From assembly GCF_003952725.1 (NCBI RefSeq), contig NZ_CP032509.1, positions 3,372,001 through 3,436,000 on the forward strand: a DNA stretch of 64,000 bases, given 5' to 3'. The stretch comes from Georhizobium profundi (GTDB lineage Bacteria; Pseudomonadota; Alphaproteobacteria; Rhizobiales; Rhizobiaceae). A program made the translations under genes and the position numbers. The notes under the pieces are model-generated. The model worked only from the letters and a program-made list of their open reading frames with translations. It did not search any database and had not been told where the DNA came from. Below, one piece after another: positions 55,501-61,684 of this stretch (positions are counted from its first letter, which is position 1; each line of letters starts with the position of its first letter).

Positions 55501-55707
55501 CTAAAACAGTCGGCTTGTAGCTGCAAACCGACCATAGACCGCGGCCGCCGCACCCAAAGCACCAATGGCCTGGAGCAATGCCTCCGTCAAAATGAGCTGG
55601 TCACCCGTTTCGAGCGTCAAGCCGAAGAGGCTTCCGAGAGAGGCTGCAGCGGCGATCAGGCCGCCCCAGATGCTGCGCGACATATACCAGGGCTTGATGG
55701 GATCCAT
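55501..55707 (-). CDS. Small phage-type membrane protein (holin-like)
   Basis: 68 residues with AGGAG before ATG 55707. Begins DPIKPWYMSRSIWGGLIAAAA, has one to two hydrophobic helices (IWGGLIAAAASLGSLFGL; ALLQAIGALGAAAAVYG) and a short basic end. Proteins with this look are found at the end of GTA/prophage tail clusters in Rhizobiales and are annotated as holins or hypothetical. Place directly after the gene 15 remnant supports a phage origin; a lysis role is unproven. Confidence 0.6.
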   Translation of the reverse strand: MDPIKPWYMSRSIWGGLIAAAASLGSLFGLTLETGDQLILTEALLQAIGALGAAAAVYGRFAATSRLF

Positions 55708-55734: not shown

Positions 55735-57501
55735 TCAAAGGGTGATCACGGCGCGCGCCGGAAGCCCGAGAGCCATGCGCGATCCGATCTGGCGCACTGT
55801 GATCTCGATGGTCGAAAGCGGCGCGCCGAAGACCGCGCGTTGCTCCGCGTCCGAAAGATGAAACCGGGGCTCGAAGACGTCCACGATGTGCTGGGTCGCA
55901 GATCCGTCTATGATCTGAAGGCGGTATCGCTCGCCGTCAGCATCAAGCGATATGTCGCTGCCGAGCCAACTGTCGGAATCGATACGACCGCGCCTGATCC
56001 AGCAAATTTCGATGCTTCCCTCCTGATCCCGAAAGGCTTCGAGATGCACCGGCGCAAGCGGCGTCAGCGCTCGAGTTCCGCCTGCAATTGGTGTCGCGAG
56101 TCGCTGTACTTCTCCGCCGGTCGCCGAAATTCGCCAGTTGAAGGGGATGCCCACCTCGCTCGGCCGCAACCGGATCGGCGCCAACGCCTCATCCAGCACC
56201 ACGATGCGTGCGTCGATGTCTGCACCCGCAAGCATCGCGTCTTCCGTGCCGCCCTGCCCCCGCAGCAGGCCGCTCAGTCGCCAGTGACCGATTTCGGTCT
56301 CCTCGGCGTGCGTGAACTGAACGACCTCCCAGGCACCGGAATTGCTGCGCACTGCCAACGCGTTGGCGCCGTTCAACACAGCAAGCTCGGCTGCAGATTC
56401 CAGGCTCCCGAAGGCCAGCCGGCAAAATAGCGTCCCAGAACGGTCGAACCGGTTCGCGACACCAGGCTGCAGCGCAGCGGTCAGCACGCCCATGCGAGCG
56501 GGTCGTTCGATTTCTGCTCTCTCGCGAAAGCCTTCCTGCCCTTCGGACATGGAAAGGAGAGCGCGCTTGAACGGCCTGCTCCAGAGAGCCGCCTTGAACC
56601 ACCCTGTTTCATCGAAGCCGTCGAGTACAGGGAGATCGATCAGCTCGATCATGGGCAGCCAGGGCGCCAGCCTGTCAGGAAGTGACGGCGGCCTCGTTCC
56701 ACCGGTACCCGGCAATTTCGGCTGAGCCTCGGCGATGCTGCGCGCTTCGATCCGCCTTGCGCCGCCATCTTCGATGCGGGTCACTGCCCAGCGTGTCGTG
56801 ACCTGCCCTTCCAGAAGCAGCACGTCACCCGGTTCGATCTCGATCCGAGATGGCGGCAGAGCGAAAGTCGCCCGCTCACCTCCAGCCCAATGGTCGCGCA
56901 ACCAGGCTTCCGCCTGCGCCCCGGCCGTTTCCTCGGTCATCACAGCAGGCAGCGAGAGCCGCTGCAGACGCGTCTCCGATGTTTCCAGCCTGCGCGACCT
57001 GCCGATTGCCGCCGAATAATCGCTGTCCGGATCGATGTGGTCGATGATGCATTGGACGGCGAGCTCGTCGGTCTGCGATCGCACAAACGCAATCGTCGCA
57101 GCCTCGTCAGGCTCGACAAGCACATCCGCTGCCAGGGGCGCCACAACGCTGGTGGACCTTGAGCGGACGCGGATGACGCCTGCACTTTCATGGGCATCCG
57201 CCTGAGCAAGTTCGAGAAGCGGTTCGATCAGAGCGCGTGCCGTCATCGGCTCGCTCTGGACATAGCCGCTGAGATCGACGTTCAGATCGTCGCACCGGAT
57301 GGACGAAACGCCGTGGTCGATTCCGATCGCTTCGATGATGTCTGCCATGGCCGCGGTCCCCAGCCGGCCGTTCAGCCAATGGCCTGTGCGCCAGTTCGCC
57401 CCATCGGACCAGACAGCGCTGTCAGCCGGAAAAGCGGGATAGGGGCGCGCATCCCAGGTCCACCCGAAGATGTGATCCAGGTCGACCATGCCAGCTGGCA
57501 C
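55735..57501 (-). pseudogene. GTA gene 15 (baseplate/host-specificity protein), C-terminal half after frameshift
   Basis: 588 codons from GTG 57501 (or ATG 57489) to 55735. The opening MVDLDHIFGWTWDARPYPAF is the direct continuation of the upstream frame's C-terminus in intact family members, where a WxWDARPxPAFP stretch follows the glycoside-hydrolase-like domain. The rest has the phage-tail domain of this family (LPSRIEIEPGDVLLLEG-like region, then GLLRGQGGTEDAM). Read together with 57503-59572 minus one base the product would be 1278 residues, normal for a Rhizobiales gene 15. No good ribosome site precedes the second part, so it is probably not translated alone. Confidence 0.75.
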
Positions 57502-57502
57502 T

Positions 57503-59572
57503 TCACTGCTCGACCAAGTCGAGATGAGCCTCCATGAAGCGTCGTTGAATGAGATCGGACCGCGCACCGGTCGAGAAATACGGGATTTGCCCTTCCGACG
57601 ATTTTGGATCCGGAAAGACGTTTGGCTGGTTGGCTCCCTTGTCGACCGCCGGACAGCCAAGCTCGGTGAACCAGATGGGCTTTGCGCCCGGCAGCCAGGC
57701 GGTCGGCAGCGCGCGTTCCACACCGCCACGTCGCTCGAAGTGAGGATTGCTCCACCAGCCTTCCAGATCCTTCGTCCGGAAGACCCAGGGCTTGTCGTGC
57801 GCACCATCGGTGATGGGCGTGCGACGCCTCTCGGCGCGGTCGCTGGCCGTCGCATAATACCAGTCGAACCCTTCACCGCCCGCTATCTGTGCCCGCATCC
57901 CCACCCGATCAGTGGGGTTGGCGAATCCATCGGGATTGCCATCGGTGACATCACCGTCCTGCCAATCGGCAAGTGGCATGTAGTTGTCGATCCCGATCGC
58001 ATCGATCGCGTCGCTCATCCAAAGCGGATCGAGATTGAAAAACACGTCGCCGCTGCCGTCATCCGGTCGATAGCCGAAATATTCGGTCCAGTCGGCGGCG
58101 TAGGTCAGGCGAGTGGCGGGCCCCATGATGGAGCGCACGTCGTCGGCGAGGCGGATGAGCGCTTCGACGAACGGGAATGCTTCGTTCTCGTCCCGCAGAC
58201 GCGTCAGGCCGCGCATCTCCGAGCCCAGGATGAACCCATCGACGCCGCCGGTCTGCGCCGCAAGATGCGCGTAGTGAAGGATGAACCGTCGATAACCGGA
58301 ATCGCTGCCGGAATAGGCGATGCCTCCTGCACCGGCCGCAAAGTCCGTCGGCAGTGCGGGTCCGCAAAAGGCCTCCACCTGAGCCCGCACCGCCGCCGTG
58401 CGATCGGCGCTGCCCGTGCGACCGGGCGCCGGATAGCTCGTGATGCGACCGCGCCACGGATAGGCCGGCTGCTCGGCTCCGCCTTCGGGATCCGGCAGGC
58501 CGTTGCCAGGCGGAACATCCAGCATCACGAACGGATAGAGATAGACTTTCAACCCGCGCGCCTTCAGATCGGCAATGGCTGCACGCACGCTTGCATCGCT
58601 CGGCGTGCCGCCATAGGCGGGCGAACCGTCCTTCCTCGAAACGAGCAAGGCTGATTGCCGATCGATACCCGCAACCGACCAGGGCTGGCTCTCGTCCAGC
58701 CGCAAAGCCACCTCCACCCTCGGATCGATGCGACAGGCCCCCGCACGCAGGTCGCTGCCGAACCAGGCGCAAACCAGCGCCACGCTTTCAAGATTGGGGC
58801 AGAGCGCCTGCAGCTCATCGAGCGATGCGGCCCAGTCGCTCGTCGCATGCAAGGCGTGACGATTGAGAAACCGCCCCTCACCGTCACCCACTCGCTCCGA
58901 CACCGGTGCCGGTTGATAGCCATGTTCCGTTGCGCCCGGGATCATGGTGATGGCCCGCAGCCCCTGCTCCAACCGACCGATCGGGCGCATCACTTCAAAT
59001 GTCAGTACCGGGATCCGGTTGCCGAAACGGTCGAGCGGCAGGCGCTCGAACACCACATAGGCGAGGCCACGATAAGCTGGCGCCTCGCCGTCGCGCTGCT
59101 TGGCGTCGATCAATGGGTCTGGAAGCTGTTCTTCCGTGCCGTTATGGACCCGCATTTCGATCGCGGTCAGGTCGAGCTCCTGTCCGTCGGCCCAGACGCG
59201 CCGCACGCCGGCAATCACGCCCTCGCACAGACCGATCGCGAAATTGCCGAAATAGCTGTAGGTCTCGACCCGCTGACCGCCGCCCTTCGCACCTTGTCGC
59301 TCCCGCGTCACGGCCTCCTCGAAGCGCGTCGCCCAGATCAGCGTGCCTGCAATCCGCGCCGTGCCATACAGGCGGTTGATCCCCGCGCCTTCCTCGGCAG
59401 ACGGAATGCGCCCGCCCTCGAGGCGCGGCCCACGCCGCGTTTCGCCGCCGATCAGCGCCCGGTCGACCGCTGCTCCGGCCAAGGCGCCTGCCGCACGACC
59501 GACGATCGCGCCGAATGGACCGAACAGGCTGCCGAATGCAGCACCTGCCGTCTGCAAAAGAATGGTGGCCAT
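57503..59572 (-). pseudogene. GTA gene 15 (baseplate/host-specificity protein), N-terminal half, frameshifted
   Basis: 689 residues from ATG 59572, whose A is shared with the gene 14 stop (TGATG). Starts MATILLQTAGAAFGSLFGPF, with the glycine-rich hydrophobic N-terminus of the family, then RRVWADGQELDLTAI and the TIM-barrel glycoside-hydrolase-like domain (GFILGSEMRGLTRLRDE, LTYAADWTEYFGYRPDDGSG, KPIWFTELGCPAVDKG). It ends early at EAHLDLVEQ. One extra base near 57517 (GAC-T-TGG) shifts the frame away from the WSSSEVPAGMVD continuation. In GTAs this protein forms the baseplate and tail fibre hub. Confidence 0.8.
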
Positions 59573-60021
59573 CAGTCGGTGATCCCCGGAAAGCAATAGG
59601 CTGCGGCGACACGGCGCCGCCACGAAGGCACCAGGGCCGATTGGACGACGCTCGCCTGCTCGTAGGCGTGGATGAAGTGGTCGCGGCCGCTCAAGATGCC
59701 GATATGCCTGGCCGGCTGATCAGGCCTCCAGCGCAGTACGATCAGGTCACCCGGCTGCGCGACGGCGAGGCCGAAGGCCGCGCCGCAATGGCGTTCCGCC
59801 GCTTCCAGCAGCCTCTCGCCTTGGTTGCCATCTGCCCAGTCCGCAGCGTAGGGACCAGGCGCCTCCGGTTCGCAGCCGTACACGGCGCGCCAGACACCGC
59901 GGACAAGGCCGAGACAGTCGCAGCCGATGCCCAGGCTCGATCCCTGATGCCGATAAGGCGTGCCCAACCACCGCCTCGCTTCGTCGAGTATGCGCTGTCG
60001 CGTGATAACCGGCGTCGTCAT
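59572..60021 (-). CDS. GTA gene 14, NlpC/P60-type cell-wall peptidase
   Basis: 149 residues from ATG 60021, overlapping the upstream stop (ATGA). NlpC/P60 fold: ILDEARRWLGTPYRHQG, catalytic Cys in GIGCDCLGLVRGVW and His in PARHIGILSG, with the hydrophobic PGDLIVLRW strand before it. In GTAs and phages it sits at the tail tip and cuts peptidoglycan during injection. All key residues are intact although both neighbours are damaged. Confidence 0.88.
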   Translation of the reverse strand: MTTPVITRQRILDEARRWLGTPYRHQGSSLGIGCDCLGLVRGVWRAVYGCEPEAPGPYAADWADGNQGERLLEAAERHCGAAFGLAVAQPGDLIVLRWRPDQPARHIGILSGRDHFIHAYEQASVVQSALVPSWRRRVAAAYCFPGITD

Positions 60022-61010
60022 GGCACCACCGGCGCGCCGTCGTGCAGACCATTTTCGCCGGCATAGCCATAGGCGAAGTCGGAACCCGGCAGATGCGGAA
60101 ATCCTTTGAAATTCAGTACGTTGGCAAATTTCTCTCGGCACGTCTTGAACGTCTTGTCACAGCCCGACGTGAGCTGGAGCGTGTCGCCTTCCTGCGGCGC
60201 ATCGGCCATCGGCGACCACAGCTCGATCTCCGTGCCATCGTCGTGACGGGTGTGATTGAGCACCGCAACCGACACTCCCGTGTTCACACCGCTCTGCCAG
60301 GTGGCAAGGCCGTAGCGAAACCAGCCATCTTCAAAGCTCTCGATCCCGATGACCCGCAGCTTTGCTCCGTTTGCAACAGCAGTGACGGTCCCCATTCCAG
60401 TCAGCTCTGGCGCATCGAGGGTTACGCGACATCGGTGATCACCGAGATTGGCATCGCAACGGCGGCCATAGACGCGCCCCCGGACGGCGTCGAGCTGTTG
60501 CGCCATGCTGCGCAGCTCGGCACGAAACGCCTGTCCAGCACGCGAAACTTCGCCCAGATCGAAAACCTGCTTCAGCAGATGGCCCTCCGCCGGATCTTCG
60601 ATCAACTCGCCGCCCAGTTCCTGTCGTCCAAGACGGGTTCCGCCATAGCGACCCTCGATCGCCTCCAGAAATCCCGGTGCGAGATTGGCGCTGTTGTCCT
60701 GTGTCGCAATCCTTACGCATGCCGTCGTCGGGTCGGCCATGATCCGCTTCAAAAGCGGCACTGCGCGCGGCGTCGTCGTCACCAATTGCCTTGGCCGTTG
60801 ACCGAGCCGCAGTCCGAATTGCAGCATGTCGAACGTTTCGTCCGGGTGCCGCCATTTGGCGAGTTCGTCGCACCAGGCCAGCTCGAATTGCGGCCCGCGC
60901 AGGCTTTCCGGATCCTCAGACGAGAAAATCTGCGCCACCGCCGCTTGCCCAGACCAGCCTGCGCCGCGAGGCTTCAAACCTTGGCCGATCATCCCGCGCG
61001 ATCCGCGCAA
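60018..61010 (-). CDS. Chimeric ORF: terminase large-subunit ATPase core fused to C-terminal part of GTA gene 13 (DUF2163)
   Basis: 330 codons. Residues about 22-139 are the middle of a GTA large terminase: VAQIFSSEDPESLRGPQ, Walker B in FELAWCDELAKW, LVTTTPRAVPLLKRIM and TRLGRQELGGELIED. From about residue 139 on the protein is the C-terminal two thirds of the DUF2163 tail protein (gene 13): LGEVSRAGQAFRAELRSMAQ, YGRRCDANLGDHRC, GCDKTFKTCREKFANVLNFK and GFPHLPGSDFAYGY. The join is around 60585-60600 and is in frame. The terminase nuclease domain and the first about 120 residues of gene 13 are absent. The frame has no proper start: it is in the wrong frame relative to the terminase N-terminus (60916-61320). 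Confidence 0.85.
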   Translation of the reverse strand: MRGSRGMIGQGLKPRGAGWSGQAAVAQIFSSEDPESLRGPQFELAWCDELAKWRHPDETFDMLQFGLRLGQRPRQLVTTTPRAVPLLKRIMADPTTACVRIATQDNSANLAPGFLEAIEGRYGGTRLGRQELGGELIEDPAEGHLLKQVFDLGEVSRAGQAFRAELRSMAQQLDAVRGRVYGRRCDANLGDHRCRVTLDAPELTGMGTVTAVANGAKLRVIGIESFEDGWFRYGLATWQSGVNTGVSVAVLNHTRHDDGTEIELWSPMADAPQEGDTLQLTSGCDKTFKTCREKFANVLNFKGFPHLPGSDFAYGYAGENGLHDGAPVVP

Positions 61011-61320
61011 TGCCCGATACGCCGTCGATCATCACCTCTCGCGCATCGCCAAGCGTCTCCCCGACAAGCGCGATCCGCATTTCCGGGCGGGTGGCGCCCG
61101 TCCCGTTTGCCTGGCGCCCGGTGCTGGATGCCATGCCCTGCACCCACTCCGATCCCGCGCGGGTCTTTCCAGATCCCCGCCCGCCCATCAAAAGCCAGGT
61201 GCGCCAATCCCCGTCCGGCGGATGCTGGGCCGTCCTCCCCTGATACGCCCAGTCCGTATCGATGAATGTCTGCTCGTCCTGCGACAATCCCTTTGCCAGT
61301 CTCGCTTCATTCGTCGCCAT
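60916..61320 (-). pseudogene. GTA gene 2 (terminase large subunit), N-terminal fragment
   Basis: 134 codons from ATG 61320 (MATNEARLAKGLSQDE). Walker A is complete in WLLMGGRGSGKTRAGSEWV, followed by the usual MRIALVGETLGDAREVMIDG. The frame runs into a stop at 60916 just after RRRLVWASG. The expected continuation (VAQIFSSEDPESLRGP) is in the next frame, so there is a +1 (or -2) shift at 60936-60942. With the nuclease domain also missing, this terminase cannot package DNA. It overlaps the small-terminase-like gene by 14 bases. Confidence 0.85.
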
Positions 61321-61669
61321 CAGCGCCGCCCGGCTCCCTCTCCAGTTTGATCCGCTCCTCAAAAAGCGCTTCGATCCGGGCCGAAACGCGCGCCGCGAGC
61401 CGCTCTCGATCAATTTTCACATCTGCGTCCCTGCTGAAGACATCGGCCAGGATCAGTTCCAGAAGTTTCTCGTGGGTCTTCGCGAAGCTCACGATAAGAT
61501 CGAGGATCGACTTGATGTCGCGCAGTGCGTCTGCGTCACTGCGCTCCGCCCGCTCTTTCTCCGATCGCGCTCTGATCACTTCGAACGCGCCGTATTCACT
61601 CTCCAGGCGCCGCCACAGCCGATCCAGGAGCTTCAGGCCCCGCCGCTCCGCTGCCGTCTTCGCCATCAT
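61307..61669 (-). CDS. GTA gene 1 candidate (small terminase-like)
   Basis: 120 residues from ATG 61669 (MMAKTAAERRGLKLLDRLWR). All helical and highly charged, with DIKSILDLIVSFAKTHEKLLELI in the middle and a Arg/Glu-rich coiled-coil end (RIEALFEERIKLEREP). Position immediately before and overlapping the large terminase, size and helical make-up match the GTA small terminase; sequence similarity could not be tested. GGTGGGTGG lies before the start. A strong terminator hairpin ends 16 bases upstream. Confidence 0.6.
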   Translation of the reverse strand: MMAKTAAERRGLKLLDRLWRRLESEYGAFEVIRARSEKERAERSDADALRDIKSILDLIVSFAKTHEKLLELILADVFSRDADVKIDRERLAARVSARIEALFEERIKLEREPGGADGDE

Positions 61670-61684
61670 CCACCCACCGCGCAT

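What the first reader, a model, noticed from the sequence alone, without database searches (positions are those of the whole stretch)
60018..61320. GTA cluster with a large internal deletion that fused terminase to the gene 13 tail protein
Genes follow the GTA order 1-2-13-14-15, but everything from the terminase nuclease domain through gene 12 and the first third of gene 13 is gone. The break is inside one open frame: terminase sequence ending GGELIED runs directly into gene 13 sequence DPAEGHLLKQVFDLGEV at about 60585-60600. Typical gene 2 and gene 13 proteins both have an ED/DPAE-like residue pair there, so a short homology may have mediated the deletion. The result is a chimeric frame that keeps the gene 13 C-terminus readable. 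This looks like a frozen intermediate of GTA decay and is the most unusual locus in the window.
Basis: partly seen in the sequence, partly recalled or inferred. Interest (0 to 1): 0.85.

Follow-up and report, generated by a model that had tools for sequence, protein, structure and literature searches.

The report
Gene transfer agent cluster, recently broken
A bacterium closely related to Rhizobium albus has lost about 8,000 bases from the middle of its virus-like DNA-transfer gene cluster, which left two unrelated gene halves stuck together; its closest relative still has the whole cluster, so this is an ordinary and recent gene-loss event.

Summary
On the minus strand an RcGTA-like head-tail cluster reads gene 1, the start of gene 2 (large terminase), then the end of gene 13, 14, 15. 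The 330-aa frame 61010-60018 joins terminase (residues 28-141) to the baseplate hub (139-326). Rhizobium albus NBRC 110149 (95-96.5% DNA identity in the main blocks) and a second same-genus species carry the missing genes, 7,959 bp in R. albus, at exactly this point. The removed DNA is nowhere else in the 4.36-Mb contig. It is a lineage-specific deletion.

Corrections: the shared ED/DPAE pair is not supported; both relatives lack ED in gene 13 there, and the join shows either a 4-base match with one extra base or next to no homology. "Frozen" is not supported: substitutions show no detectable loss of constraint, so inactivation looks recent. A gafA-like activator gene stays open. Incomplete RcGTA-like clusters are already described as abundant. 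A clean instance of a known process.

The parts
61307..61684 (-). GTA gene 1 homologue (putative small terminase), open frame of 125 aa from the upstream ATG; no Pfam or NCBIfam hit, assigned by position and conservation in G001/G002
   Evidence: role of g1 as small terminase in R. capsulatus from passages of PMC6854486
60916..61320 (-). gene 2, N-terminal piece of the large terminase (Terminase_6N profile 1-77), ends early at a frame-breaking lesion near 60941
60018..61010 (-). fused open frame: rest of the terminase ATPase domain (residues 28-141) joined to the hub C-terminal part (139-326)
60590..60599 (-). deletion junction: left parent (terminase) matches through 60595, one base 60594 matches neither parent, 60593-60590 match both parents, right parent (gene 13) from 60593 on
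59572..60021 (-). gene 14, NlpC/P60 cell wall peptidase (TIGR02219), open, 149 aa
57503..59572 (-). gene 15 (megatron), N-terminal half, NF048004 positions 1-697; ends early at a frame-breaking lesion near 57517
55735..57515 (-). gene 15 (megatron), C-terminal half in another frame, NF048004 positions 707-1298
55501..55707 (-). 68-aa frame directly after gene 15, also seen in the DNA of G001 and G002; possible membrane protein (holin-like), guessed from its look only
   Evidence: alignment; function not tested

Best explanation
This is a recently inactivated RcGTA-like gene transfer agent cluster. After the split from Rhizobium albus, one deletion of 7,959 bp removed the second part of gene 2 (from codon 243 of 432), genes 3 to 12 and the first 106 codons of gene 13, probably by repair of broken or slipped DNA with little or no homology; two short frame-breaking losses also hit gene 2 and gene 15. 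The species can no longer make GTA particles from this locus (inferred: portal, protease, capsid, tail tube and tape-measure genes are gone). The fused 330-aa frame is a by-product without expected function. Shown: the two halves, the deletion, its ends, the two lesions, their absence in two relatives, no other copy of the removed DNA. Inferred: order of events, repair route, loss of particle production.
For: Two halves match terminase and hub families. Two collinear alignment blocks meeting at 60590-60593 against G001 and G002, with 7,955-7,960 bp between them in each relative; exact junction. G001 has open frames for terminase with Terminase_6N and 6C, portal, prohead protease, capsid, connector, DUF2460 distal tail, hub, NlpC and a 1,296-aa megatron. 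Distance terminase piece to hub piece is 7,959 bp in R. albus and 7,959-9,720 bp in 14 of 14 named loci that hold both halves (80 loci examined). Genes removed here are under purifying selection between G001 and G002 (dN/dS 0.04-0.26 for the 11 frames listed). A 7,801-bp query from the removed part finds only a 78-bp match elsewhere in the genome. Flanking control: 45 genes compared; leaving out the first 120 nt of each, no or one gene has a frame-changing difference in the window's copy, versus two in 5.95 kb of GTA remnant (p 0.012 or 0.034). Branch-wise N/S in the remnants 47/78 for the window against 46/84 for G001 (p 0.79), so inactivation occupies an estimated 2% (95% upper 14%) of the branch under a simple model.
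Against: Reads were not available, so an assembly join at 60.59 kb cannot be excluded outright, nor single-base errors at the two lesions. 7 of 45 control genes show a net frame-changing difference in the window's copy when whole ORFs are used; I attribute these to ORF starts chosen too far upstream (positions 6-84 of the ORF, one at 284), which was not proved gene by gene. The substitution test has little power in the short retained pieces (9/7 against 5/8 in the hub part, p 0.46). Only two same-genus genomes are held.
Confidence: 0.93

Rival explanations
1. Assembly artefact: the strain has an intact cluster and the assembler skipped 8 kb.
For: No reads could be checked. The join is supported by one assembly only.
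Against: The genome is one 4.36-Mb contig with 99.11% completeness. The junction carries one base that fits neither parent and the adjoining sequence is otherwise as expected. The removed stretch is not repetitive with respect to the rest of the genome. Two further lesions in the same remnant fit a dying cluster.
Confidence: 0.05
2. A functional chimeric protein: the terminase ATPase part and the hub part were recruited together for a new task, for example interfering with particles of related phages or GTAs.
For: The join is in frame and open; the hub part keeps its domains. A prophage with the same kind of hub, peptidase and megatron lies in the same genome.
Against: The terminase frame is broken upstream of the fused part, so the frame lacks the terminase start and its first ~23 residues are out-of-frame reading. 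No sign of constraint: 9 nonsynonymous and 7 synonymous changes on the window branch in the hub part. No second case: of 61 family genomes only the window's has one match over both halves, and 0 of 80 named loci.
Confidence: 0.02
3. Remnant of a prophage rather than a GTA: a defective temperate phage with GTA-like tail genes.
For: Prophages with GTA-like tail genes exist, one in this genome, others in print (PMC11409702, passages).
Against: Head genes of the intact relatives are RcGTA-type (Terminase_6, HK97-type portal, protease and capsid), same place and order in three species, a DUF6456 (gafA) gene about 10.5 kb away in all three, and the separate prophage uses a GpA terminase and another capsid. 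No integrase or phage replication genes were searched for, so this rests on content and conservation.
Confidence: 0.03

Closest known systems
RcGTA-like head-tail cluster (type I GTA of Alphaproteobacteria; Rhodobacter capsulatus GTA)
   Same: gene 1, gene 2 terminase, gene 13 hub, gene 14 NlpC peptidase, gene 15 megatron in RcGTA order; gafA-type DUF6456 gene in the genome
   Different: genes 3-12 and parts of 2 and 13 are deleted; genes 2 and 15 are also frame-broken
Cluster of Rhizobium albus NBRC 110149 (G001, BSNO01000003.1)
   Same: same chromosomal neighbourhood, 95-96.5% DNA identity in the main blocks
   Different: keeps all genes in open frames
Incomplete RcGTA-like clusters in other Alphaproteobacteria
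   Same: described as abundant in a passage of PMC9765227; in the present family sample 5 of 48 other genomes with matches have only one half or fragments
   Different: here the deletion is dated by a 95%-identical intact relative and its ends are known to the base

Membership tests
RcGTA-like gene transfer agent cluster | RcGTA gene order with GTA-type terminase, hub, peptidase and megatron | tested here: met
   PF03237, TIGR02218, TIGR02219 and NF048004 in order 2-13-14-15
RcGTA-like gene transfer agent cluster | portal, protease, capsid and tail genes 3-12 present | tested here: not met
   absent from the locus and from the genome; present in the relative. It is therefore a remnant, not a working cluster
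RcGTA-like gene transfer agent cluster | gafA-type activator in the genome | tested here: met
   DUF6456 hit in 3 of 3 genus genomes at E about 1e-47, open frames of 291-305 codons; naming of DUF6456 as gafA from a table in PMC9765227 (passage). The DnaA-like N-terminal domain was not looked for
RcGTA-like gene transfer agent cluster | vertical inheritance at a fixed place in related species | tested here: met
   collinear in window genome, G001 and G002
RcGTA-like gene transfer agent cluster | production of particles that carry host DNA | not testable with these tools
   no experiment; not expected without genes 3-12
Temperate prophage remnant | integrase, attachment sites, replication and lysogeny genes | not tested
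   no search for these was made around the cluster

The most novel reading that the evidence does not exclude
The fused terminase-hub frame, together with the still open gene 14 and the kept gafA gene, was retained for a new task such as spoiling the assembly of related phage or GTA particles, made by cells that can no longer build particles themselves.
Probability: 0.02. Interest if true: 0.7.

Novelty: new member of a known kind. Interest (0 to 1): 0.2.

Why it matters
It is a clean before-and-after pair: a species with a broken GTA cluster and a 95%-identical relative with an open one, with the deletion ends known to the base. That makes it a usable natural knock-out for asking what a lineage loses when GTA production stops, and it shows that a dead cluster keeps a normal-looking substitution pattern and an open activator gene for a while, so presence of gafA or of single conserved GTA genes does not prove a working GTA. 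It does not change the understanding of GTAs.

Tried and rejected
Shared ED/DPAE homology as the cause of the deletion: rejected at residue level, open at DNA level (chance of a 4-base match 0.02, of a 1-base match 0.46). Two readings of the join remain: one added base beside a 4-base match, or one substitution with a 1-base match. The genome encodes Ku, as do both relatives, so end joining is possible but this does not single it out.

Recombination with the second GTA-like tail module in the genome: the module at G000:C1:3.290-3.310 Mb has an intact hub, peptidase and megatron but only 39% protein identity to the fused frame's hub part, and only a 78-bp DNA match to the removed stretch; not a likely partner.

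Search for the same fusion elsewhere: 61 family genomes including the window's own: 49 have a match. Of the 48 others, 43 have both halves as separate matches: 34 on one contig 8.3-14.8 kb apart, 3 on one contig 19-57 kb apart, 6 on different contigs; 5 have one half or fragments (counted from the list). Some terminase matches there run past query residue 139 (for example to 203) at 51-61% identity; these genomes have the hub as a separate match, with the exception of one (G031) that has no hub match. 80 named loci kept, a capped list (596 stretches matched, 535 confirmed, best 80 kept): 14 have both halves 7.96-9.72 kb apart, 64 terminase only (45 of these with at least 9.5 kb of DNA downstream, so hub farther away, too different or lost; not told apart), 2 hub only, 0 fused.

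Structure prediction and fold search were not used, since the frame is a broken by-product.

Full report
What is there. The window is G000:C1:3372001-3436000 of a 4,356,607-base single contig. On the minus strand, between 61.7 and 55.7 kb, lie a gene 1 homologue, a piece of a large terminase, the fused frame, an NlpC/P60 peptidase and a megatron in two frames. The fused frame 61010-60018 has Terminase_6N at residues 28-141 and TIGR02218 (baseplate hub) at 139-326.

Comparison with close relatives. Three genomes of the genus are held, the window's own included. G001 and G002 each have the terminase match and the hub match about 8.3 kb apart. G001's contig 3 has the same length (1,582,379) and match position as BSNO01000003.1, so G001 is taken to be Rhizobium albus NBRC 110149. 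DNA of the window aligns to both as two blocks that stop and restart at 60590-60593; outside the deletion the main blocks are 95.2-96.5% identical to G001, with one 2-kb block at 92.0%. At base level the left parent is followed through 60595, base 60594 fits neither parent, 60593-60590 fit both, and the right parent follows. In R. albus 7,959 bp lie between. With the terminase start placed as in G002, the break is in codon 243 of 432; the hub keeps residues 107-297 of 297 (from coordinates).

What is missing. In G001 the stretch holds the rest of the terminase with its nuclease domain, portal, prohead protease, capsid, a connector, smaller tail frames, a frame at the tape-measure place without a Pfam hit, the DUF2460 distal tail protein and the N-terminal domain of the hub. 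Between G001 and G002 these frames show dN/dS of 0.04 to 0.26. The stretch is not elsewhere in the window's genome, except for a 78-bp match at 77% in another prophage.

Further lesions. Aligned with both relatives, the window has small frame-breaking losses in the terminase piece near 60941 and in gene 15 near 57517, not shared by G001 or G002. Open copies exist in the relatives. The fused frame therefore lacks the terminase start. In 45 flanking genes a frame-changing difference in the window's copy was counted in 7 whole ORFs, all but one within the first 84 nt of ORFs that had been extended to the first possible start, the last at nt 284 of 1,266 in a gene where G002 also differs. With the first 120 nt of each ORF left out, two lesions in 5.95 kb of remnant against none or one in 48 kb gives p 0.012 or 0.034. 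So random sequencing error is a poor explanation, though reads were not seen.

Age. With G002 as outgroup, the retained GTA pieces have 47 nonsynonymous and 78 synonymous changes on the window branch and 46 and 84 on the G001 branch (Fisher p 0.79). Control genes have 172/779 and 175/826. GTA genes thus evolve faster than neighbours in both lineages, and no additional loosening is seen in the window's lineage. Under a simple two-phase model the neutral part of the branch is 2%, at most 14%. 'Frozen' is the wrong word; 'recent' fits.

How it came about. The join is compatible with end joining or slippage with a 4-base match and one added base, or nearly no homology and one substitution. A Ku gene is present in 3 of 3 genus genomes. 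No repeat longer than 4 bases at the ends is seen. The in-frame join has a one-in-three chance and is no sign of selection.

What remains of the system. A DUF6456 gene, the domain by which gafA is listed in PMC9765227 (passage), stands about 10.5 kb from the cluster in all three species in an open frame. PMC6363796 (passages) states that gafA homologues occur in Rhizobiales and may be split. Gene 14 stays open. G002 has its own one-base frame difference in gene 15, so gene 15 may be damaged independently there; its assembly is a draft of about 20 contigs.

What is known. [quoted passage not shown] PMC9836097 says the genes are kept to varying degrees in about half of Rhizobiales; PMC9662315 gives 57.5% of 1,423 alphaproteobacterial genomes with RcGTA-like genomes. 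Passages only were read. In five literature searches the listings showed no paper titled on this deletion or on a terminase-hub fusion; that is not proof of absence.

Verdict. Observation confirmed, main interpretation right in outline, two corrections (homology, age) and two additions (terminase and gene 15 lesions). A new instance of a known process.

Noticed in passing
G000:C1:3290673-3308915 (L003, L004; outside the window): A prophage-like region with GpA terminase, another capsid type, lambda-type tape measure and a GTA-like tail end (522-aa frame with hub, NlpC, intact 1,321-aa megatron). A hybrid of lambda-like head and GTA-like tail in the same genome.
   Followed up: partly
G000:C1:3444167-3444571 (L110; outside the window): An open DUF6456 (gafA-type) gene kept although the cluster it would switch on is broken.
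   Followed up: partly
L101 near 17859 (G002): Gene 15 of the second relative has a one-base frame difference of its own, so two of three genus members may have damaged GTA clusters by separate events.
   Followed up: partly
G048:C31:60692-61136: Another family member with a terminase in fragments with stops and no hub match, a more decayed stage.
   Followed up: no
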